From Limisphaerales bacterium (lineage in GTDB: Bacteria > Verrucomicrobiota > Verrucomicrobiia > Limisphaerales > UBA11358), in assembly GCA_003134375.1 (NCBI GenBank), contig PLAY01000016.1, positions 1-38,291 on the forward strand: DNA of 38,291 nucleotides, in the 5' to 3' direction. Position numbers and translations under genes: made by a program. A model generated the notes under the pieces. It was given only the letters and a program-made list of their open reading frames with translations. It was not told the origin of the DNA and made no database searches. Below are positions 843 to 30,857 of the stretch, piece after piece (position 1 is the first letter of the stretch; every line of letters begins with the position of its first letter).

Positions 843-1585
843 CCTCCGATGCATCCACGCCGTCCACAGGCGCCCCGGGCGACGTCTTCGCCACGACGCA
901 TTGGACGGTCGTGCTCGCCGCCGGACGACGCAGCACGCCGCAATCCGACCACGCGCTGGAGGAGCTTTGCCGCGCCTACTGGTTTCCGCTCTATGCTTAC
1001 GTTCGCCGGCACGGTCACACGAAGGAGGACGCCGAGGATTTGACCCAGGCCTTCTTCGCGCGCTTTCTTGAGAAAAATTATCTCGCCGGCCTGAGCGCCG
1101 AACGCGGCCGTTTCCGCGCCTTCCTGCTCGCGTCGTTGAAGCATTTTCTCGCCAATGAATGGGACAAATCCCGGCGCCGGAAACGCGGCGGCGTGACGCC
1201 GCTGTCCTTGGACTGGCAGACCGCTGACGCGCAATTTCAAATCGCCGACCCGACCGAGCCAAGTCCCGACAAGGCCTTCGACCGCGAGTGGGCCGTGACC
1301 TTGCTCGCCAAGGTCATCGAACGGCTGCAAACCGAGTACGAGGCGGACGGTCGGGGAAAACAGTTCGCGGAACTGAAAATTTTCCTCACCGCCGGCAAGG
1401 GTGCGTTGTCCCACGCCGCTGCCGCGAAAGCGTTGGGCATGGATGAAGGCGCGGTGCGCGTGGCGGTACACCGCTTGCGGAAGCGCTACCGGCAACTGCT
1501 CCGCGACGAAATCGCGCAAACCCTGGCTGATTCGGCAGACGTGGATGAGGAAATGCGCGCGCTGTTCGGAGCGTTTTCAGGGTAG
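800..1585 (+). CDS. ECF-like RNA polymerase sigma factor (sigma-70 family)
   Basis: A 261-residue sigma factor. The early FATTHWTVVLAA motif (residues 30-41) and the region-2 stretch LCRAYWFPLYAYVRR...EDAEDLTQAFFARFLE (57-91) are typical of the ECF-like sigma factors expanded in Verrucomicrobia and Planctomycetes. Region 4 is a helix-turn-helix near 203-235 (AAAAKALGMDEGAVRVAVHRLRKRYR). The linker between them is longer than in classical ECF sigmas, as usual in this group. The ATG at 800 lies inside the upstream gene. An in-frame TTG at 839, overlapping that gene's TGA, would give a protein starting just before FATTHW and is a real alternative. No anti-sigma factor or kinase follows, although such sigmas often neighbour Ser/Thr kinases. 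The TAG stop lies inside a repeat hairpin. Confidence 0.88.
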   Translation: MERRFHPSFPKNRLTSDASTPSTGAPGDVFATTHWTVVLAAGRRSTPQSDHALEELCRAYWFPLYAYVRRHGHTKEDAEDLTQAFFARFLEKNYLAGLSAERGRFRAFLLASLKHFLANEWDKSRRRKRGGVTPLSLDWQTADAQFQIADPTEPSPDKAFDREWAVTLLAKVIERLQTEYEADGRGKQFAELKIFLTAGKGALSHAAAAKALGMDEGAVRVAVHRLRKRYRQLLRDEIAQTLADSADVDEEMRALFGAFSG

Positions 1586-1627
1586 CACCCGCGTCTCGCG
1601 GGTCAAATTCGGCGTCCCGCCGAATTT
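1582..1627. repeat. GTAG-foot double hairpin after the sigma factor
   Basis: GTAG at 1582-1585 is followed by ACCCGCG (1587-1593) and CGCGGGT (1597-1603) with a 3-nt loop. A second hairpin has a 10-bp stem (1605-1614 with 1618-1627) around the loop TCC. The TAG of the foot is the sigma factor's stop codon. The hairpins might also act as a transcription barrier, but no T-tract follows. Confidence 0.75.
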
Positions 1628-1690
1628 CGTCGTGAACCACAGATTGCCGCAGTTCATTTGAGCATCAAGTAATCGTACATTTCGCGGTTG

Positions 1691-1730
1691 TTTCCGGCGC
1701 GACGCCGGAAACGACAGGCCGGAGGCCTGT
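1691..1730. repeat. Two adjacent short hairpins
   Basis: TTTCCGGCG (1691-1699) pairs with CGCCGGAAA (1703-1711) around CGA. ACAGGCC (1714-1720) pairs with GGCCTGT (1724-1730) around GGA. They lie in the non-coding stretch between the sigma factor and mqnE, which consists mostly of such palindromes (1582-1869). I see no promoter-like element that I can defend there. Confidence 0.65.
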
Positions 1731-1782
1731 GCCACCCACAAGCCAAGTGCATTTGCCTTGCCGCGCAAAAGGTGCTAACTCT

Positions 1783-1869
1783 GTAGCCGCGCTTGTGAAA
1801 GCGCGGATTGGTCCGCCGATTTGCATCCACCCTCCGCAGTATTGCTACGGAGGACGGGTCGGCGGCTAC
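1783..1869. repeat. GTAGCCGC...GCGGCTAC palindromic element (87 bp) before mqnE
   Basis: The element has perfect 8-bp terminal inverted repeats. Its left end is a GTAG foot followed by the hairpin CCGCGCTT-GTGA-AAGCGCGG. The same left end recurs at 31256. An internal stem pairs CCTCCG with CGGAGG. The right end stops 7 bp before the mqnE ATG, so the element makes up nearly the whole mqnE leader. Confidence 0.8.
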
Positions 1870-1876
1870 GAGTAAA

Positions 1877-3199
1877 ATGAATTTCTTCGTTCAACACAGC
1901 GAATTGCGCGACCTCTACGACAAGGTGGCCGCCGGGGAACGTATTTCCGAGGCCGATGCGCTCCGGCTGTTTGAGTCGAAGGATTTGAACGCCGTCGGCG
2001 CCATCGCGGACCTGGCGCGCCAGAAAAAGATCGGCAACCGCGCCAGCTACATCATCAATCGTTACATCAACTACTCGAATTACTGCATCCTGTCGTGCCA
2101 GTTCTGCTCGTTCGCGCGCAAGAAACGCGACGCCGACGGCTTCGAGCTAACCGTCGAACAAATTGTGCAAAAGGTGCGGGAAGCCTTGAAACTCGGCATC
2201 ACCGAACTGCACATCGTTGGCGGGCTGCATCCATCGCTGCCGTTCAGCTATTACACCGACATGCTCAAGGCGTTGCGGGCGCTGGATGCGCCTGCTCCAT
2301 GTAGCGCAGCCGTCCCGGCTGCGAGTTCCAGCAGCGTCTCGCTGCCAGACAACGGGAAAACGGGTAATCCTCGCACCGGGACGGCGCGGGAACTCGCAGG
2401 CGAGGACGCCTGCGCTACGCCAAACACCTACGGCAGCGCTCCCAGGTTGCATCTCAAATGCTTCACCGCGATTGAAATTTTACACCTCGCCTGGCTCGCG
2501 AAAAAATCCGTCGAACAAACTTTGGTTGAACTGAAGGCCGCCGGGCTGGATTCGCTCACCGGCGGCGGCGCGGAAATTTTTCGACCGGAAGTCCGCTCGG
2601 CCATCGCCCGGGGCAAGGAATCCGCGGCGGAATATCTGGACGTGCATCGCACGTGGCACAAGCTGGGCGGGCGCAGCACCTGCACGATGCTCTACGGCCA
2701 CGTCGAATCGCTGGCCGACCGCGTGGACCATCTGCGACAGTTGCGCGCGTTGCAGGACGAGACGCGCGGCTTCGTGGGCTTTGTGCCGCTGCCGTACCAG
2801 CCGGAAGACAACGACATCCCGGTGGAAAATCCGCCGACCGGTTTCGATGCGCTGCGCACCATCGCCGTGAGCCGCGTCTATCTCGACAACTTCGACCACA
2901 TCACCGCGTATTGGGTGGGCATGGGGCTGAAGCTGGCGCAGGTGGCATTGAGCTACGGCGCGGACGATTTGCACGGCACCATCATCGAGGAACATATCTT
3001 CCACATGGCCGGCGCGACCTCGCCGCAATTGCAGACCGAGACGGAAATGATTAAAGCCATCCGCGAAGCCGGCCGCACGCCGGTGCAACGCAACACGTTT
3101 TACGAACCAATCAAGATTCTGGAAAGCGCACCCGTGCCAGACGCGACCGAAAATTCAGCACGTTCCAAAGTGTTGGAAGACAATCTGGCAACGGCGTAA
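1877..3199 (+). CDS. mqnE: Aminofutalosine synthase MqnE (radical SAM), with in-frame repeat insertion
   Basis: A 440-residue radical SAM enzyme. MqnE joins 3-[(1-carboxyvinyl)oxy]benzoate to S-adenosylmethionine to make 6-amino-6-deoxyfutalosine in the futalosine route to menaquinone. The cluster-binding CxxxCxxC motif is at Cys70, Cys74 and Cys77 (NYCILSCQFCSF). It is followed by LHIVGGLHPSLPFSYY (111-126) and LHLKCFTAIE (191-200), both characteristic of MqnE. Between RALD (134-137) and LHLK, where the family normally has only a few residues, there is a low-complexity stretch of about 53 residues encoded by a palindromic repeat. The C-terminal half continues normally (LTGGGAEIF, GFVPLPYQPEDN, HMAGATSP), so the gene appears intact and in frame. 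The ATG at 1877 is chosen because residues from MNFF onward align with the family; upstream codons are repeat. mqnA follows 57 bp later. Confidence 0.93.
   Translation: MNFFVQHSELRDLYDKVAAGERISEADALRLFESKDLNAVGAIADLARQKKIGNRASYIINRYINYSNYCILSCQFCSFARKKRDADGFELTVEQIVQKVREALKLGITELHIVGGLHPSLPFSYYTDMLKALRALDAPAPCSAAVPAASSSSVSLPDNGKTGNPRTGTARELAGEDACATPNTYGSAPRLHLKCFTAIEILHLAWLAKKSVEQTLVELKAAGLDSLTGGGAEIFRPEVRSAIARGKESAAEYLDVHRTWHKLGGRSTCTMLYGHVESLADRVDHLRQLRALQDETRGFVGFVPLPYQPEDNDIPVENPPTGFDALRTIAVSRVYLDNFDHITAYWVGMGLKLAQVALSYGADDLHGTIIEEHIFHMAGATSPQLQTETEMIKAIREAGRTPVQRNTFYEPIKILESAPVPDATENSARSKVLEDNLATA
2301..2418. repeat. 118-bp GTAGCGCAG...CTGCGCTAC element inside mqnE
   Basis: The ends GTAGCGCAG and CTGCGCTAC are perfect inverted repeats. 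The left half reads GTAG + CGCAGCCG-TCC-CGGCTGCG + AGTTCC. The right half, read on the opposite strand, is GTAG + CGCAGGCG-TCCT-CGCCTGCG + AGTTCCC. The element is therefore a head-to-head pair of near-identical hairpin units, like a BIME. It lies wholly within the mqnE reading frame (about residues 142-181) without introducing a stop. Confidence 0.9.
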
Positions 3200-3210
3200 G
3201 CCGATGCTAC

Positions 3211-3242
3211 CTTTGCGGCTTTGCGCCTTCGCGCCTTTGCGT
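3211..3242. repeat. 8-bp tandem array (CTTTGCGN x4)
   Basis: Four octamers in a row: CTTTGCGG, CTTTGCGC, CTTCGCGC and CTTTGCGT. They are followed by TAAAA and fill most of the 57-bp gap between mqnE and mqnA. The array leaves little room for a separate promoter, which fits cotranscription of the two genes. Confidence 0.75.
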
Positions 3243-3256
3243 TAAAATCTTCGCGC

Positions 3257-4027
3257 ATGTCTGCTGACACCCCGAAATTTCGCATCGGCTCGGTGCCATA
3301 TCTCAACGCCGTGCCACTTACGCGCGGCATCGAGAGCGAAGTCATTTTCGCCACGCCCGCCCGGCTCGCCGAAATGCTCCGCCGGGATGAGCTCGACGCC
3401 GCGCTCGTCAGCGTTACCGAGGTTTTGCTCAATGACCGCTACGACATCCTCGACGGCGTCGCCATCGCATCGCTGGGGGAGGTGTACAGCGTGCTGCTGG
3501 CGCACTGCGTGCCGCTGGAAAGCATCACGGAAGTTTTTTGCGACCCGGCTTCGCTGGCCAGCATGAACTTGTTGAAGGTTCTGCTGGCGGAACGCGGCTT
3601 GAAGCCAGAATTCAAACCGTTGCCCGACTACGACACCGCCTCGCAACGCGATGCCGTGCTGCTGATCGGCGACCGGGCGATTGATTTTCAACGCGCCACG
3701 CCTGTGCATGAAATTTTCGATCTCGGCACGGCGTGGTATGAACTGACGAATCTGCCGTTCGTTTATGCCGTGTGGGCGTTGCGGCGTGGGATTGAAAACA
3801 AGGCCCTGTGCCGCGAACTGCGCGAGACGAAGGATTTCGGGATGGAAACGCTGGATTACCTCATCGAAACCCGCGAGGAATATGACGAGGATTTCCGCCG
3901 TGATTACCTCGGCTGGCATGTCCACTACCATCTGGCCGAGGACGAGAAGCGCGGTATCGCGAAATTTGCCGAACTGCTCCAAAAACACGGCTTCGGGCCG
4001 GTGTATGAACCCAAATATGTGAGTTGA
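3257..4027 (+). CDS. mqnA: Chorismate dehydratase MqnA
   Basis: A 256-residue soluble protein of the MqnA/MqnD fold (periplasmic-binding-protein-like). It dehydrates chorismate to 3-[(1-carboxyvinyl)oxy]benzoate, the substrate of MqnE encoded just upstream. Visible family features are the opening FRIGSVPYLNAVPL (residues 8-21), the ASLGEVYSVLL segment, LIGDRAI and the FDLGTAWYELTNLPFVYAVW segment. Length is normal for the family. ATG at 3257 is preferred because the RIGSVPYLN motif follows directly; an upstream in-frame start would be encoded by the octamer array. No Shine-Dalgarno sequence is obvious. The remaining futalosine genes (mqnB, mqnC, mqnD) are not in this window. Confidence 0.94.
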   Translation: MSADTPKFRIGSVPYLNAVPLTRGIESEVIFATPARLAEMLRRDELDAALVSVTEVLLNDRYDILDGVAIASLGEVYSVLLAHCVPLESITEVFCDPASLASMNLLKVLLAERGLKPEFKPLPDYDTASQRDAVLLIGDRAIDFQRATPVHEIFDLGTAWYELTNLPFVYAVWALRRGIENKALCRELRETKDFGMETLDYLIETREEYDEDFRRDYLGWHVHYHLAEDEKRGIAKFAELLQKHGFGPVYEPKYVS

Positions 4028-5267: not shown

Positions 5268-6167
5268 CTAAAACTTCGTCAGCTTTTCCAGTTCCTTCAC
5301 GCGGCGGTCAATGTCGGCGCGTTTGATCGCCGTGGTGCGCGTCAGGCCGAAGCCTTCACAGCAGAATGACGCCGTGACGCTGCCGTAAATCATCGCGCGC
5401 CGGAGGTTGGCATCAATCGAGCCTTTGGCGGCGGCGAGATAACCCATCATGCCGCCTACGAATGAATCGCCCGCGCCGGTGGGGTCCACCACCGTGGACA
5501 GCGGATACGCCGGACAGAGGAAAAATCCCTTCGGCCCGGACAGGATGGAGCCGTGCGACCCTTTTTTTATGATCACATACTTTGGACCCAGCTTGTGGAT
5601 TTTTTTCACCGCGGCAAACATGTTGTCCTCCTTGGTCAACTGGTACGCCTCGCCATCGTTGAGCACAAATCCGTCGAGGCGCGGGAGCAGCCGCAACAAA
5701 TCCACCAGCGCGATGTTCAGCCACAGGTCCATCGTGTCGGCCACGACGAATTTGGGCTGGCGCATCTGATCCAACACGTGAAGCTGGAGCGCGGGTGCGA
5801 TGTTCGCCAGCAGCACGAACGGCACGGCCTGGTGTGCCTTGGGCAGCGTGGGCGTGAAGGTCTCAAACACGCCGAGCTCGGTCAGCAGCGTGCGGCGGTT
5901 GTTCAGGTTCGCCTCGTATTCGCCCGACCAATGGAAGGTTTTGCCGGGCAGAATCTGCAGGCCGTCGAGATCAATTTTATGCCGGCGGTAAAGTTCGAGG
6001 TATTTCTTCGGAAAATCGTCGCCGACCACGCCGATCAATTTGACCGGGCCGAAAAAGCTCGCGGCGACGGCGGCATGGCTGGCCGAGCCGCCGAGCAGGC
6101 GCGGATTTTCCGCGTTCGGAGTTTTGATGGAGTCCAGCGCGGTTGAACCGACAATTAAAACGCTCAT
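5268..6167 (-). CDS. PfkB-family carbohydrate/nucleoside kinase
   Basis: A 299-residue ribokinase-fold kinase that phosphorylates a sugar or nucleoside hydroxyl with ATP. The N-terminal GGSASHAAVAAS segment (residues 26-37) and the anion-hole/catalytic signature DPTGAGDSF (228-236, catalytic base Asp234) are intact. VVGDDFP and the VIIKKGSHGS strand are also typical. The substrate cannot be assigned; it resembles the adenosine-kinase-like or unclassified PfkB proteins of Verrucomicrobia rather than ribokinase itself. The ATG at 6167 overlaps the TGA of a tiny upstream ORF as ATGA. That suggests coupling and an operon running from the glyoxalase-like gene through the small ORF to this kinase. 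Confidence 0.9.
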   Translation of the reverse strand: MSVLIVGSTALDSIKTPNAENPRLLGGSASHAAVAASFFGPVKLIGVVGDDFPKKYLELYRRHKIDLDGLQILPGKTFHWSGEYEANLNNRRTLLTELGVFETFTPTLPKAHQAVPFVLLANIAPALQLHVLDQMRQPKFVVADTMDLWLNIALVDLLRLLPRLDGFVLNDGEAYQLTKEDNMFAAVKKIHKLGPKYVIIKKGSHGSILSGPKGFFLCPAYPLSTVVDPTGAGDSFVGGMMGYLAAAKGSIDANLRRAMIYGSVTASFCCEGFGLTRTTAIKRADIDRRVKELEKLTKF

Positions 6168-6329: not shown

Positions 6330-6725
6330 TCAGTGACCGCTCTTGCCCTTTTGTATGAGTTCGATTTCATAGCCTTCCGGCGCGTCAATGAAGGCAAATA
6401 CCGTGCCAGGGGAAGTGGTGGTGGGGCCGTCGGAATACTTCAGGCCGTGTTGGGCGAGGTGTTTGCCGAATTCCTCAAGATTGTCCACCTCGAACGCGAG
6501 ATGGGTAAGGTCGGCTTGCACCTGCACCGGGCCGGCGGCGGGAAAGCAGCAGATTTCAACCTGCTCCTCGCTGCCGGACGCCTTGAGAAAAACCAGTTCC
6601 GAACCACGCGGCGATTTGTGCCGCCGGATTTCCTCGAGGCCCAGCACGTTGCGGTAAAACTTTATCGTGCGTTCGAGATCGTTGACGCGGTAGCGCGTGT
6701 GCAACAGCTTTGTAACTTTGCTCAT
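6330..6725 (-). CDS. VOC-superfamily protein, glyoxalase I-like
   Basis: A 131-residue single-module VOC (vicinal oxygen chelate) protein very like lactoylglutathione lyase, which isomerises the hemithioacetal of methylglyoxal. LLHTRYRVNDLERTIKFYRNVLG opens the first beta-alpha-beta module. HLAFEVDNLEEF opens the second, and the end is FAFIDAPEGYEIELIQK. The likely metal ligands are His9, a Glu in the EEQVEIC strand, the His of HLAFEV and the Glu of YEIELI, matching the His-Glu-His-Glu set of GloA. Length is normal. Because many VOC proteins share this layout, methylglyoxal as substrate is likely but not proven. It appears to be the first gene of an operon with the small ORF and PfkB kinase. 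Confidence 0.85.
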   Translation of the reverse strand: MSKVTKLLHTRYRVNDLERTIKFYRNVLGLEEIRRHKSPRGSELVFLKASGSEEQVEICCFPAAGPVQVQADLTHLAFEVDNLEEFGKHLAQHGLKYSDGPTTTSPGTVFAFIDAPEGYEIELIQKGKSGH

Positions 6726-27000: not shown

Positions 27001-27723
27001 TTATTTCATCGCCGCATAGACGTGATGCACGTCGTCGTGGTCGTCCAGCGCGTTCAGGAAATTCATGACGTCCTGGCGCGCCGCCCCGCTGACTTCGACA
27101 AAATTCTTGGCGAGATAACGCATTTCCGAGGCGATGACATTCCAGCCGGCGGCTTTCAATGCCTTGGAAACGTGATCGAGGTCCTTGATTTCCGTCAGAA
27201 ACCGCGCGCCCTTCTGTCCGGCGGGGATTTCCTCGGCTTCAAGCGGTTCAATCTCCTGCGCGCCGGCTTCGATGGCGTCAGCTTCCGCGTCGCGATTGGC
27301 GTCGGGATGGGTGGCTTCGACCACGCCGAGGTGATTGAAGAAAAACGCCACGCTGCCGGGCTGGCCGAGCGAGCCGGCCTTGAATAGATTGCGGATTTCC
27401 GGCGCCGTGCGGTTGCGGCTGTCGGTGAGACATTCAACGATGACCGGCACCTTGTGCGGCGCGAACCCTTCATAGACGATGGTTTCGTAATTGACCTTTT
27501 CGGTGTCGAGTCCGGCGCCCTTTTTGATGGCGCGTTCGATGGTGTCCTTGTAAACGGAAGCTTTCTTGGCTTTTTCAACGGCGGCGAAGAGGCGCGGATT
27601 GAGGTCGGGGTCGGGACCGCCGAGTTTGGCCGCGACCATGATTTCGCGAACCAGTTTGACGGTCATCTGGCCCTTTTTCTGCGCGTTAATTTCGCGTCCG
27701 GACTGTTTCCATTGTGCGCCCAT
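27001..27723 (-). CDS. YebC/PmpR-family (TACO1-like) regulator or translation factor
   Basis: A 240-residue protein with the three-domain YebC layout. It starts GAQWKQSGREINAQKKGQMTVKLVREIMVAAKLGG (in YebC, 'GHSKWANI.H.K...'), followed by NPRLFAAVEKAKKASVYKDTIERAIKKGAG, YEGFAPHKVPVIVECLTDSRNRTAPEIR and FFFNHLG. This N-terminal variant resembles the YeeN-like branch. YebC proteins have been described as transcription regulators, and more recently as helping ribosomes on proline-rich stretches. The Pro-rich linkers of the neighbouring DUF2339 protein are the sort of sequence that could need this, though that is only a remark. The ATG at 27723 is the natural start. Divergent from the rhamnosidase gene, with a repeat-filled leader. 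Confidence 0.88.
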   Translation of the reverse strand: MGAQWKQSGREINAQKKGQMTVKLVREIMVAAKLGGPDPDLNPRLFAAVEKAKKASVYKDTIERAIKKGAGLDTEKVNYETIVYEGFAPHKVPVIVECLTDSRNRTAPEIRNLFKAGSLGQPGSVAFFFNHLGVVEATHPDANRDAEADAIEAGAQEIEPLEAEEIPAGQKGARFLTEIKDLDHVSKALKAAGWNVIASEMRYLAKNFVEVSGAARQDVMNFLNALDDHDDVHHVYAAMK

Positions 27724-27793: not shown

Positions 27794-28060
27794 CTTGTGT
27801 TCACGAACGAAGGCGGCTCGTAGCGCAGGTTTCCAAACCTGCCGTATCGCCGACTTCCAAGTCGGCAAGGCGTTGGGAATCACCCAGTTTGCGGGTTTGG
27901 AAACCCGCGATACAGCAGACTTGGCAGTCTGCGCTACGGAGTCGGTGTCAAGATGCGCAATGGTGTCCATTGAACCTAGCGGGTGTGCCGTTGCCGCGGC
28001 ACCCGGCGGCGCAGCACCGCCCACCAACCAGAAAACTTGTGTTCACGAACGAAGCCGGCT
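27794..28060. repeat. 25-bp near-perfect direct repeats flanking a repeat-rich intergenic
   Basis: The 25-bp sequence beginning CTTGTGTTCACGAACG lies at 27794-27818 and again at 28036-28060, with one mismatch. A related piece (CTCACGAACG) lies at 31291. Between the copies are the 118-bp palindrome and about 100 bp of GC-rich DNA without obvious function (27938-28035). Confidence 0.75.
27820..27937. repeat. 118-bp GTAGCGCAG...CTGCGCTAC element with four hairpins
   Basis: Same terminal 9 bp and same total length as the element inside mqnE, but a different interior. Successive stems are GCAGGTT/AACCTGC, GCCGACTT/AAGTCGGC, GCGGGTTT/AAACCCGC and GCAGACT/AGTCTGC. It sits 2 bp after the first of the 25-bp direct repeats. 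Confidence 0.87.
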
Positions 28061-28076
28061 TAAGCTGAAGCTCCGC

Positions 28077-30857
28077 ATGTTAACCCCATTCGACAGAAGC
28101 AAGGCACACGGCAGGTGCCTGATCTTGGCCGCCGGTTTCTGGCTGGCGCTGGCCTCCCCAAGTCTGGCGACCGTGACCGTTGGCGATTTGCGCTGCGACT
28201 ATGCCGTGAATCCGCTCGGCGTGGACTCGCCCCAGCCGCGGCTGTTTTGGAAATTGGAAAGCCGGGAGCGCGGCCAGAAGCAGGCCGCCTGGCAAATCCT
28301 CGCCGCATCGTCCGCGAAAAATCTGGCGGCGGACAACGGCGATTTATGGGACAGCGGCAAGGTGGATTCCGGCGAAACAATCCAGATTGCCTACGGCGGC
28401 GGGGAACTGAAATCCGCGCAGCCGGTTTTTTGGAAAGTCCGCGCCTGGGACGCCGGCGGAAAGGTTTCCGCATGGAGCCGGCCGGCGACCTGGACGATGG
28501 GCGTGCTGGCCGGTCCGGATTGGCGGGCCAAATGGATTTCCGCACCGGACACCAATTTTGAAACGCTGCTGCTGCGCCGCGAATTCACCGTGAAGCCCGG
28601 ACTCCAGCGCGCGCTCGTGAACCTTTGCGGCCTCGGCCAGTACGAATTGTCGCTGAATGGAAAAACGGCCAACGACGGTCTGCTCGCCCCCGGCTGGTCG
28701 AAATACGACCGGACCTGCCTCTACGACACCCTCGACGTCACAAAGTTCCTGCACCGGGGAAAAAATGCCGCCGGAATTTTTCTGGGTTGCGGAATGTATG
28801 ACGTGCATGACGCCGCTCCCCGGTGCTTCATTCCTCCAGGCCTGGTTCCCTACACTTTTGGCCCGCTCCAGGCCATCGCCCAATTGCGGCTCGAATATGC
28901 CGACGGCACAGTCGAAATCATCGGCACGGACGAAACCTGGCGGGTGGCGCCGGGGCCCATCACGTTTTCATCGATTTTCAACGGCGAAGATTTTGACGCG
29001 CGGCTCATGCCCGAGGGATGGGACCAGGCCAATTTCAACGACGCGAAGTGGCGATTCGCGCAGGTCACCGGCGGACCGGGCGGGGAATTGCGCGGCCTTT
29101 CCTGCGCCGCGCCGCCCATCCGCGCCTTTGAGGTGTTGCCACAGATTTCCACCCGCCAGCTCACGAACGGCGCGAGGGTTTATGACCTCGGCCAGAACGC
29201 CGCGGTGATCCCGCGCCTCACCGTGAAAGGCCCGGCGGGCGCGGTCGTGCGGATTGTCCCGTCCGAATTGGTGAAATCCGATGGCCGGCTGGACGATACC
29301 ATGTGCGGCGGCAAAACCTGCTGGACCTACACGTTGAAGGGTGCGGGCACCGAAACCTGGTTCCCAAAATTCTTCTACCGCGGCGCGCGTTATTTGCGGG
29401 TGGACTGCCTGCCACCCAAGGGCAAAACGAATTTGCCCGTCGTCAAATCCATTGTCGGCGTTGTCATCCAGTCCGCGTCCGCGCCGGTGGGCGAATTCCA
29501 GTGTTCCGACGGCCTGTTCAATCGCATTCACGCGCTCGTCCGCTGGGCGCAACGCGGCAACATGATGAGCCTGATGACCGACTGTCCGCAGCGCGAAAAG
29601 CGCGGCTGGCTGGAGGAGGACCACCTCAACGGCCCGGCGTTGCGCTACGAGTTCAACCTCGCGCAACTTTTTACGAAGCAAATGAACGACATGGCCGATT
29701 CGCAGTTGACCAACGGCCTCGTTCCAACGACCGCGCCGGAATACACCGTCTTCCGGGACCGGGGGCAGACCAACCGGGATGAGCGCGGCCGGTTTGGCGA
29801 TTCGCCCGAATGGGGCAGCGCGTTCATACTCGTGCCGTGGCAGCAATACGAATTCGACGGCGACCTCGAACTATTCCGCCGCCATTACGACGCGATGACC
29901 AATTACATCGCCTTCCTCGGCAGCCGCGCAAGCAATCACATCGTCAACTATGGCCTCGGCGACTGGTACGACCTCGGGCCGAAGGCGCCGGGCATGGCGC
30001 AGCTCACGCCCATTGCGCTCACCGGGACCGCCTTTTATTTCCAGGACGTGCAAATCATGGCGCAGTCGGCGGCCTGGCTCGGCAAAACGAATGACGCCAA
30101 TGCGTTTTCCGAACTCGCCGGCGAAATCCGTACCGCGTTCAACGACCGGTTTTACCACCCGACCAACCGCAGCTACGCCACCGGCTCGCAGTGCGCGAAT
30201 TCCATTCCGCTCGCGATGGGCCTTTGCGACCCGGCCAATCGCGCCGCCGTCTTGGACGCCGTGGTCGGCGATGTCCGCGCGCGCGGCAACGCGCTTACGG
30301 CCGGCGACGTGGGCTACCGGTACCTGCTCCGTGCGCTCGCCGACGGCGGGCGCTCAGACGTGATTTTTGACCTGAATCACCAGTCCGAAAAGCCCGGCTA
30401 CGGCTTTCAGTTGAAAAAGGGCGCGACGAGTCTGACCGAGGCGTGGAACGCCGGGCGCAGCTCGTCGCAGAACCATTTCATGCTCGGCCAGATCATGGAA
30501 TGGTTTTGCCACGACCTGGCTGGAATCCGGAACGGCCCCGGCAGCCCGGGCTTCAAGCAAATTCTCATCCAGCCCCAGCCCGTCGGCGATATCACGTGGA
30601 CCCAGGCGCAGTTCAATTCCATCCGTGGAAAAATCGTCAGCGACTGGAAGCGCGAGGGGGACAATTTTGCCTTGAAGGTTTCCATCCCGGCGAACACGAC
30701 AGCGACGGTGTTTATTCCGGCCAAAACTTCCGCCGGGGTGACGGAAAGTGGCAAGCCCGCGTCACAAAGCCGGGACGTGAAATTTCTCCGCGAGGAAAAT
30801 GGCTGCGCGGTCTTTGAAATCGGTTCGGGTGAGTACGATTTCGAGTCAAGACCTTGA
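28077..30857 (+). CDS. Exported alpha-L-rhamnosidase (GH78)
   Basis: A 926-residue enzyme releasing terminal L-rhamnose from polysaccharides or glycosides. A signal peptide is visible (CLILAAGFWLALASPSLA, residues 14-31). The N-terminal beta domains carry RCDYAVNPLGVDSPQPRLFWKL, the usual GH78 opening, and NGKTANDGLLAPGWSKYD. The catalytic (alpha/alpha)6 barrel has DCPQREKRGWLEEDHL, with Asp502 and Glu507 matching catalytic-site acids of Bacillus GL1 RhaB and Glu513/514 near its general-acid position. The presumed base is Glu788 in TSLTEAWN. NHFMLGQIMEWF follows. The C-terminal beta domain ends normally. ATG at 28077 is preferred because it precedes the signal peptide; codons before it are repeat DNA. 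Confidence 0.93.
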   Translation: MLTPFDRSKAHGRCLILAAGFWLALASPSLATVTVGDLRCDYAVNPLGVDSPQPRLFWKLESRERGQKQAAWQILAASSAKNLAADNGDLWDSGKVDSGETIQIAYGGGELKSAQPVFWKVRAWDAGGKVSAWSRPATWTMGVLAGPDWRAKWISAPDTNFETLLLRREFTVKPGLQRALVNLCGLGQYELSLNGKTANDGLLAPGWSKYDRTCLYDTLDVTKFLHRGKNAAGIFLGCGMYDVHDAAPRCFIPPGLVPYTFGPLQAIAQLRLEYADGTVEIIGTDETWRVAPGPITFSSIFNGEDFDARLMPEGWDQANFNDAKWRFAQVTGGPGGELRGLSCAAPPIRAFEVLPQISTRQLTNGARVYDLGQNAAVIPRLTVKGPAGAVVRIVPSELVKSDGRLDDTMCGGKTCWTYTLKGAGTETWFPKFFYRGARYLRVDCLPPKGKTNLPVVKSIVGVVIQSASAPVGEFQCSDGLFNRIHALVRWAQRGNMMSLMTDCPQREKRGWLEEDHLNGPALRYEFNLAQLFTKQMNDMADSQLTNGLVPTTAPEYTVFRDRGQTNRDERGRFGDSPEWGSAFILVPWQQYEFDGDLELFRRHYDAMTNYIAFLGSRASNHIVNYGLGDWYDLGPKAPGMAQLTPIALTGTAFYFQDVQIMAQSAAWLGKTNDANAFSELAGEIRTAFNDRFYHPTNRSYATGSQCANSIPLAMGLCDPANRAAVLDAVVGDVRARGNALTAGDVGYRYLLRALADGGRSDVIFDLNHQSEKPGYGFQLKKGATSLTEAWNAGRSSSQNHFMLGQIMEWFCHDLAGIRNGPGSPGFKQILIQPQPVGDITWTQAQFNSIRGKIVSDWKREGDNFALKVSIPANTTATVFIPAKTSAGVTESGKPASQSRDVKFLREENGCAVFEIGSGEYDFESRP

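What the first reader, a model, noticed from the sequence alone, without database searches (positions are those of the whole stretch)
2301..2418. Complete BIME-like palindromic element inserted in frame within mqnE
The 118-bp element has perfect GTAGCGCAG/CTGCGCTAC ends and two mirror-image hairpin units. It lies wholly inside the mqnE reading frame. Family MqnE proteins go almost directly from the helix ending RALD to LHLKCFTAIE; here about 53 Ala/Ser/Pro/Gly-rich residues intervene. The CxxxCxxC motif and all later motifs are intact and in frame. Since 118 is not a multiple of 3, extra bases must have been gained or lost with the insertion to keep the frame. It looks like an essential radical SAM enzyme carrying a domesticated mobile palindrome as a surface loop.
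Basis: partly seen in the sequence, partly recalled or inferred. Interest (0 to 1): 0.82.

Follow-up and report, generated by a model that had tools for sequence, protein, structure and literature searches.

The report
Mobile palindromes inside menaquinone enzyme gene
A short mobile-type DNA palindrome sits in frame inside a vitamin K2 biosynthesis gene of a bacterium of the Verrucomicrobia group, and relatives carry different palindromes at the same spot, so one loop of this enzyme seems to accept selfish DNA again and again.

Summary
The 118-bp palindrome (2301-2418) lies wholly inside an intact mqnE (1877-3199) and folds far better than shuffles (z -6.9). The two other full-length copies found in the genome flank a REP-associated tyrosine transposase (RAYT) gene, so it looks like a REP doublet (BIME/REPIN). 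Of 86 distinct mqnE sequences, 54 have no insert at this site and 31 carry 12-52 in-frame residues. These 31 fall into six multi-member sequence clusters and six singletons; 22 of 31 fold with z below -2. Five of six types searched recur in their own genomes. The window's gene and its two nearest relatives carry three different palindromes. The window's insert is layered: beside the 118-bp element lies a 17-nt remnant of another, abundant element. dN/dS is about 0.05 and the loop is predicted disordered. lnt of the same genome also carries an in-frame element; an AddB-like gene and a methyltransferase gene probably do. In-frame REPs were known, also in Verrucomicrobia (PMC3733652); recurrent one-site colonisation and nesting are what this adds. 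Expression and activity are untested.

The parts
1877..3199 (+). mqnE, aminofutalosine synthase, radical SAM, 440 aa, intact frame
2084..2107 (+). CxxxCxxC iron-sulfur cluster motif (C70, C74, C77), intact, upstream of the insert
   Evidence: invariant columns in the 45-row alignment
2288..2440 (+). whole insert relative to the empty site: 51 codons (residues 138-188)
   Evidence: comparison with 54 empty sequences of 86
2301..2418 (.). 118-bp A-type REP doublet (BIME/REPIN-like), GTAG at one end, CTAC at the other
   Evidence: same termini and layout as a second subfamily of 118-123 bp in this genome
2430..2446 (.). 17-nt remnant of the right end of a D-type element (GGGAGCGC...GCGCTCCCAGG family)
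   Evidence: exact match to D copies of the same genome; as long a match in 0 of 1000 shuffles, 0 of 359 other mqnE windows, 0 of 2327 other windows
2294..2434 (+). codons of residues 140-186, predicted disordered loop between helix 123-137 and strand 192-197
   Evidence: pLDDT below 50 throughout, block means 28-47

Best explanation
The 118-bp element is a miniature, RAYT-associated REP doublet. It entered mqnE at the codons joining a barrel helix to the next strand, where a different palindrome (D type) had probably inserted before. Shown: in-frame position; empty sites in relatives; different palindromes at the same site; the D remnant; A copies flanking a RAYT; purifying selection on the gene. 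Inferred: the RAYT made the A copy; D came first; the loop hangs out as an unfolded stretch away from the active site, so MqnE still works; selection kept only events that preserved frame and had no stop. The site is then a tolerated landing zone that is recolonised again and again, by fresh insertion or by replacement, and not a new functional domain.
For: A copies flank a RAYT (NF047646, 99.3 bits, cut-off 80) on contig C142. Of 86 distinct sequences 54 are empty, 1 has 4 residues and 31 have 12-52; all 110 fetched rows have both flanks in one frame and no stop in the insert. Six multi-member clusters and six singletons. The empty label needs 16 changes on the careful tree, at least 7 forced by starred branches. 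The window (A) pairs with L046 (D) at 100/89, and L044 (E) joins at 96/80. Matches within own genomes, both strands and the query copy counted: C type 104 in G001, D type 70 in the window's genome and 65 in G031, B type 30 in G040, E type 44 in G046, A type 21 in G022. 22 of 31 inserts fold at z below -2; control stretches average -0.09. D remnant. dN/dS 0.042 before and 0.054 after the insert against the sister gene. Loop pLDDT about 30. A D element is in frame in lnt of the same genome, with empty relatives.
Against: No transcript, protein or activity data. The A type is rare here (3 full copies), so recent mobility is not shown. The F-type insert has one other partial match in its genome, and the B-type query finds only one partial match in G075, although that genome's mqnE carries a B-type insert. 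9 of 31 inserts do not reach fold z -2, including two of three A-type ones (L013, L049). 20 of 31 filled sequences end the helix with Asn against 0 of 54 empty ones, which hints at shared history of filled sites or at local adaptation and so weakens fully independent insertion. The loci are best-scoring ones, not a random sample, so frame-broken genes would be under-represented; two relatives not fetched (G043, G051) show a stop inside a matched stretch, not examined.
Confidence: 0.86

Rival explanations
1. True landing hotspot: the DNA around the helix-strand junction is a preferred target of several RAYT systems, so insertion itself, not only survival, is concentrated there.
For: In the 45-row alignment 23 rows have inserts of 19-52 residues after residue 138, against 2 rows at the only other large site, after 297; right junctions lie within a few nt of the conserved CTGCA codons by eye.
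Against: Unrelated element families would have to share a target; the same pattern follows if only this loop tolerates inserts; no target motif was established.
Confidence: 0.2
2. Serial replacement: one or few old insertions, with the palindrome later swapped through recombination between element ends or exchange of mqnE alleles.
For: 20 of 31 filled sequences, of several element types, have Asn before the insert; 0 of 54 empty ones do. Several types share a D/E-rich prefix. L051 and L062 share a second insert after residue 297 but carry different types after 138. The window shows a D remnant beside A.
Against: Empty rows are interleaved with filled ones; at least 7 gains or losses are forced by starred branches, so repeated precise losses would be needed.
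Confidence: 0.35
3. The loop is a selected functional feature (regulation, partner binding, stability).
For: Inserts persist in 31 of 86 sampled sequences.
Against: Length (12-52), sequence and origin vary; 54 of 86 lack it; the predicted loop is disordered.
Confidence: 0.06
4. Pseudogene, assembly error, or removal at RNA or ribosome level.
For: None direct; the genome is a draft of 201 contigs.
Against: dN/dS about 0.05; conserved residues kept; frame kept in 110 of 110 fetched rows, which removal would not require; an A-type element beside a D-like end recurs in a separate record (L049, 13-nt match).
Confidence: 0.03

Closest known systems
GTAG-tagged REPs, BIMEs/REPINs and RAYTs (Di Nocera et al. 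2013, PMC3733652; passages and one section read; REPIN name recalled)
   Same: GTAG end, imperfect palindromes, inverted doublets, RAYT flanked by copies; [quoted passage not shown] different REPs at about the same site of recB in two Xanthomonas
   Different: Here one site of one enzyme carries many unrelated palindrome types across an order, plus a nested pair; the passages read name no mqnE case (its supplement was not seen)
Rickettsia palindromic elements (RPE) in protein genes (recalled, and mentioned in PMC3733652)
   Same: Palindromes inserted in frame in genes that likely encode working proteins
   Different: RPEs named there carry a CGTC tag and live in an intracellular alphaproteobacterium; this one has GTAG/CTAC ends and a RAYT
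MqnE of Pedobacter heparinus (PDB 6xi9)
   Same: Same family and fold
   Different: The sequence alignment stops at chain residue 167 and resumes at 170, where the window has the insert

Membership tests
REP/BIME/REPIN (GTAG superfamily) | GTAG tetranucleotide at the end of a short imperfect palindrome | tested here: met
   Starts GTAGCGCAG and ends CTGCGCTAC
REP/BIME/REPIN (GTAG superfamily) | Inverted units that can form a larger hairpin | tested here: met
   Fold z -6.9 with a long outer stem
REP/BIME/REPIN (GTAG superfamily) | RAYT gene flanked by copies | tested here: met
   C142: copies at 5712-5816 and 6446-6575; the NF047646 match lies between them
REP/BIME/REPIN (GTAG superfamily) | High copy number in the genome | tested here: inconclusive
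   3 full A copies and one fragment at the end of contig C106; a related subfamily of 118-123 bp with the same ends has 8 copies among fetched loci and one more in the window
REP/BIME/REPIN (GTAG superfamily) | Transposition by its RAYT | not testable with these tools
   Needs experiment
Rickettsia palindromic elements | CGTC tag at one end (as stated in PMC3733652) | tested here: not met
   Ends are GTAG/CTAC; RPE sequences themselves were not compared
MqnE (aminofutalosine synthase) | Passes the curated equivalog cut-off | tested here: met
   TIGR03700 448.1 against 434.55
MqnE (aminofutalosine synthase) | CxxxCxxC motif and MqnE fold | tested here: met
MqnE (aminofutalosine synthase) | Catalytic activity | not testable with these tools
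   Needs assay

The most novel reading that the evidence does not exclude
The helix-strand junction of mqnE is a genuine safe harbour for REP-type elements across the order: a site where unrelated RAYT systems repeatedly insert, overwrite and lose palindromes in frame, leaving a layered record of successive element families inside one core enzyme.
Probability: 0.3. Interest if true: 0.78.

Novelty: new variant of a known kind. Interest (0 to 1): 0.62.

Why it matters
REP-type elements are mostly intergenic and are usually thought to be kept out of genes by selection. Here one defined loop of a core enzyme can be compared across some thirty natural insertions, with empty, filled and nested states, so it could show how proteins absorb selfish DNA, how element families turn over, and whether RAYTs choose their targets.

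Tried and rejected
A known structured RNA: no Rfam match at gathering threshold in 1500-3400. A second intact mqnE in the genome: the window's own gene is the only match from this genome in the printed list; its four other matches are not printed and so are weaker than the last row, E 1.5e-44; the genome is 92.8% complete. Papers: none holding all of aminofutalosine synthase, insertion, palindromic; none holding all of Verrucomicrobia, in-frame insertion, palindromic; the four papers were seen as a listing only. Crude script labels put L039 in E and L121 in G; one search puts L039 with L075 and leaves L121 alone. The label counts still carry these two mislabels; the empty count is not touched by them, but its 'not empty' side includes L031 (4 residues). 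The clusters depend on a threshold that I chose, and its largest one merges B and D types. Of 20 D copies fetched, spanning frames of 12 were scanned with Pfam; one had matches, and in two of these (L183, L187) the element lies near the frame's start and was not counted. Five spanning frames of the A-like subfamily had no Pfam match. The 80 loci are the best of 347 and the 30 loci come from the best matches in 79 genomes, so 31 of 86 is not an unbiased frequency. Fold z-scores use single-base shuffles and RNA energies; single control windows reached -4.7. L121 was left out of the alignment because its stated range held a stop; 44 of the 80 loci plus the window were aligned.

Full report
The window lies in a 4.16-Mb draft genome of 201 contigs. 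Public records with the closest mqnE genes are mostly titled as uncultured Verrucomicrobia or Limisphaerales; a few carry other titles that look like bin mislabels. The gene at 1877-3199 encodes a 440-residue protein that passes the MqnE equivalog cut-off. The next gene, at about 3257-4027, matches the menaquinone biosynthesis family PF02621 (mqnA by recall).

The element is real. Its ends GTAGCGCAG and CTGCGCTAC are perfect inverted repeats and the arms pair over most of the element. As single-stranded DNA it reaches -43.1 kcal/mol, and none of 200 shuffles does as well. A search of the own genome finds two further full-length copies. They lie on either side of the conserved domain of a REP-associated tyrosine transposase on contig C142. 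One more end sits at the very edge of contig C106 and may be a cut copy. A second subfamily with identical ends and the same layout, 118-123 bp, has 8 full copies among the fetched loci and one at 27820-27937 of the window. This is the layout of a REP doublet (BIME or REPIN, names recalled; the GTAG tag is described in PMC3733652).

The site is empty in most of the sequences compared. Two searches gave 110 mqnE loci, 86 distinct. 54 have no extra residue between the helix and the strand starting RL(Q/H)LKCF, one has 4 residues and 31 have 12-52. All 110 keep both flanks in one frame with no stop in the insert. These are best-scoring loci, so broken genes would be under-represented; G043 and G051, not fetched, show a stop inside a matched stretch.

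The filled sites do not hold one element. The 31 inserts form clusters of 7, 5, 5, 3, 3 and 2 and six singletons. 22 of 31 fold with z below -2 and 19 below -3, while control stretches of the same genes average -0.09. The nine that miss -2 are two of the three A-type inserts (L013, L049) and L019, L022, L089, L090, L099, L115 and L121; of these L019, L089, L090 and L121 look to me like plain loops. Five of six types searched recur in their own genomes: C type 104 matches in G001 and 68 in G072; D type 70 in the window's genome, 65 in G031 and 42 in G050; B type 30 in G040 and 14 in G049, but one partial match in G075; E type 44 in G046 and 33 in G057; A type 21 in G022 but 3 in the window's genome, 1 in G046 and none in G031. 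These counts include both strands of a palindrome and the query copy, and for most genomes only 40 candidates were scored. The F type has one other, partial match in its genome.

On a tree of MqnE built with the inserts taken out, the empty label needs 16 changes, at least 7 forced by starred branches (the bootstrap had not fully settled). The window's gene pairs with L046 (D type) at 100/89 and then with L044 (E type) at 96/80. Three neighbouring sequences thus carry three different palindromes at one place. One result points to shared history of the filled sites: 20 of 31 filled sequences end the helix with Asn, and 0 of 54 empty ones do.

The window's insert is layered. At 2430-2446 lies ACGGCAGCGCTCCCAGG, an exact match to the end of D-type copies elsewhere in the same genome. 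None of 1000 shuffles (longest 13), none of 359 stretches of mqnE (longest 9) and none of 2327 other stretches of the window (longest 16) match as long. L049, another A-type insert, has a 13-nt match of this kind. As the sister gene has a whole D element there, the simplest history is D first, then A with loss of the rest of D. This accounts for part of the 35 nt beyond the 118 that bring the gain to 51 codons.

Other genes of this genome are affected. Of 20 D copies fetched with surroundings, one lies in frame in lnt (residues 545-571; TIGR00546 over its cut-off), where relatives align up to about 532 and again from about 580 with no bases between in several genomes, for example G002, G007 and G012. 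One lies in an AddB-like frame (662-686; TIGR02773 below its cut-off on this partial frame) and one in a methyltransferase frame (124-148); I did not test empty sites for these two.

[quoted passage not shown] In-frame REPs are therefore a known kind. I found no report of the mqnE case in the searches named; papers outside the open library were not searched. PMC8049555 (passages only) models how such elements persist and weighs how often insertion is fatal, which is where tolerance as seen here would bear.

Open points: whether insertion is targeted or only survival is; how far types replace each other by recombination; and any proof of expression and activity.

Noticed in passing
window 27820-27937: A second 118-bp element with GTAGCGCAG/CTGCGCTAC ends and different inner sequence, in the first part of a long forward open frame (27795-30857) whose real start probably lies further in, next to a reverse-strand gene starting at 27723.
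   Followed up: partly
window 1584-1630 and 1687-1719: Short palindromic stretches resembling B-type elements upstream of mqnE.
   Followed up: no
window 1783-1869: By eye only: GTAGCCGC and GCGGCTAC frame a stretch that ends just before the mqnE start at 1877; the repeat finder did not list it.
   Followed up: no
L175, L181, L185 (own genome contigs C73, C23, C98): D-type elements in frame inside lnt, an AddB-like frame and a methyltransferase frame.
   Followed up: partly
L042 5739-6632: The longest RAYT frame starts beyond one flanking element, runs through it and stops inside the other, so its true start is probably inside.
   Followed up: no
L014/L045 and L075 (G040 contigs C96 and C128): One genome holds two mqnE genes with different palindrome types at the same site; duplication or a mixed bin.
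   Followed up: no
L051 and L062, after window residue 297: A shared second in-frame insert of 46 residues in mqnE, although the two rows carry different types at the main site.
   Followed up: partly
mqnE residue 137, 86 sequences: The residue before the insert is Asn in 20 of 31 filled sequences and never in 54 empty ones.
   Followed up: no
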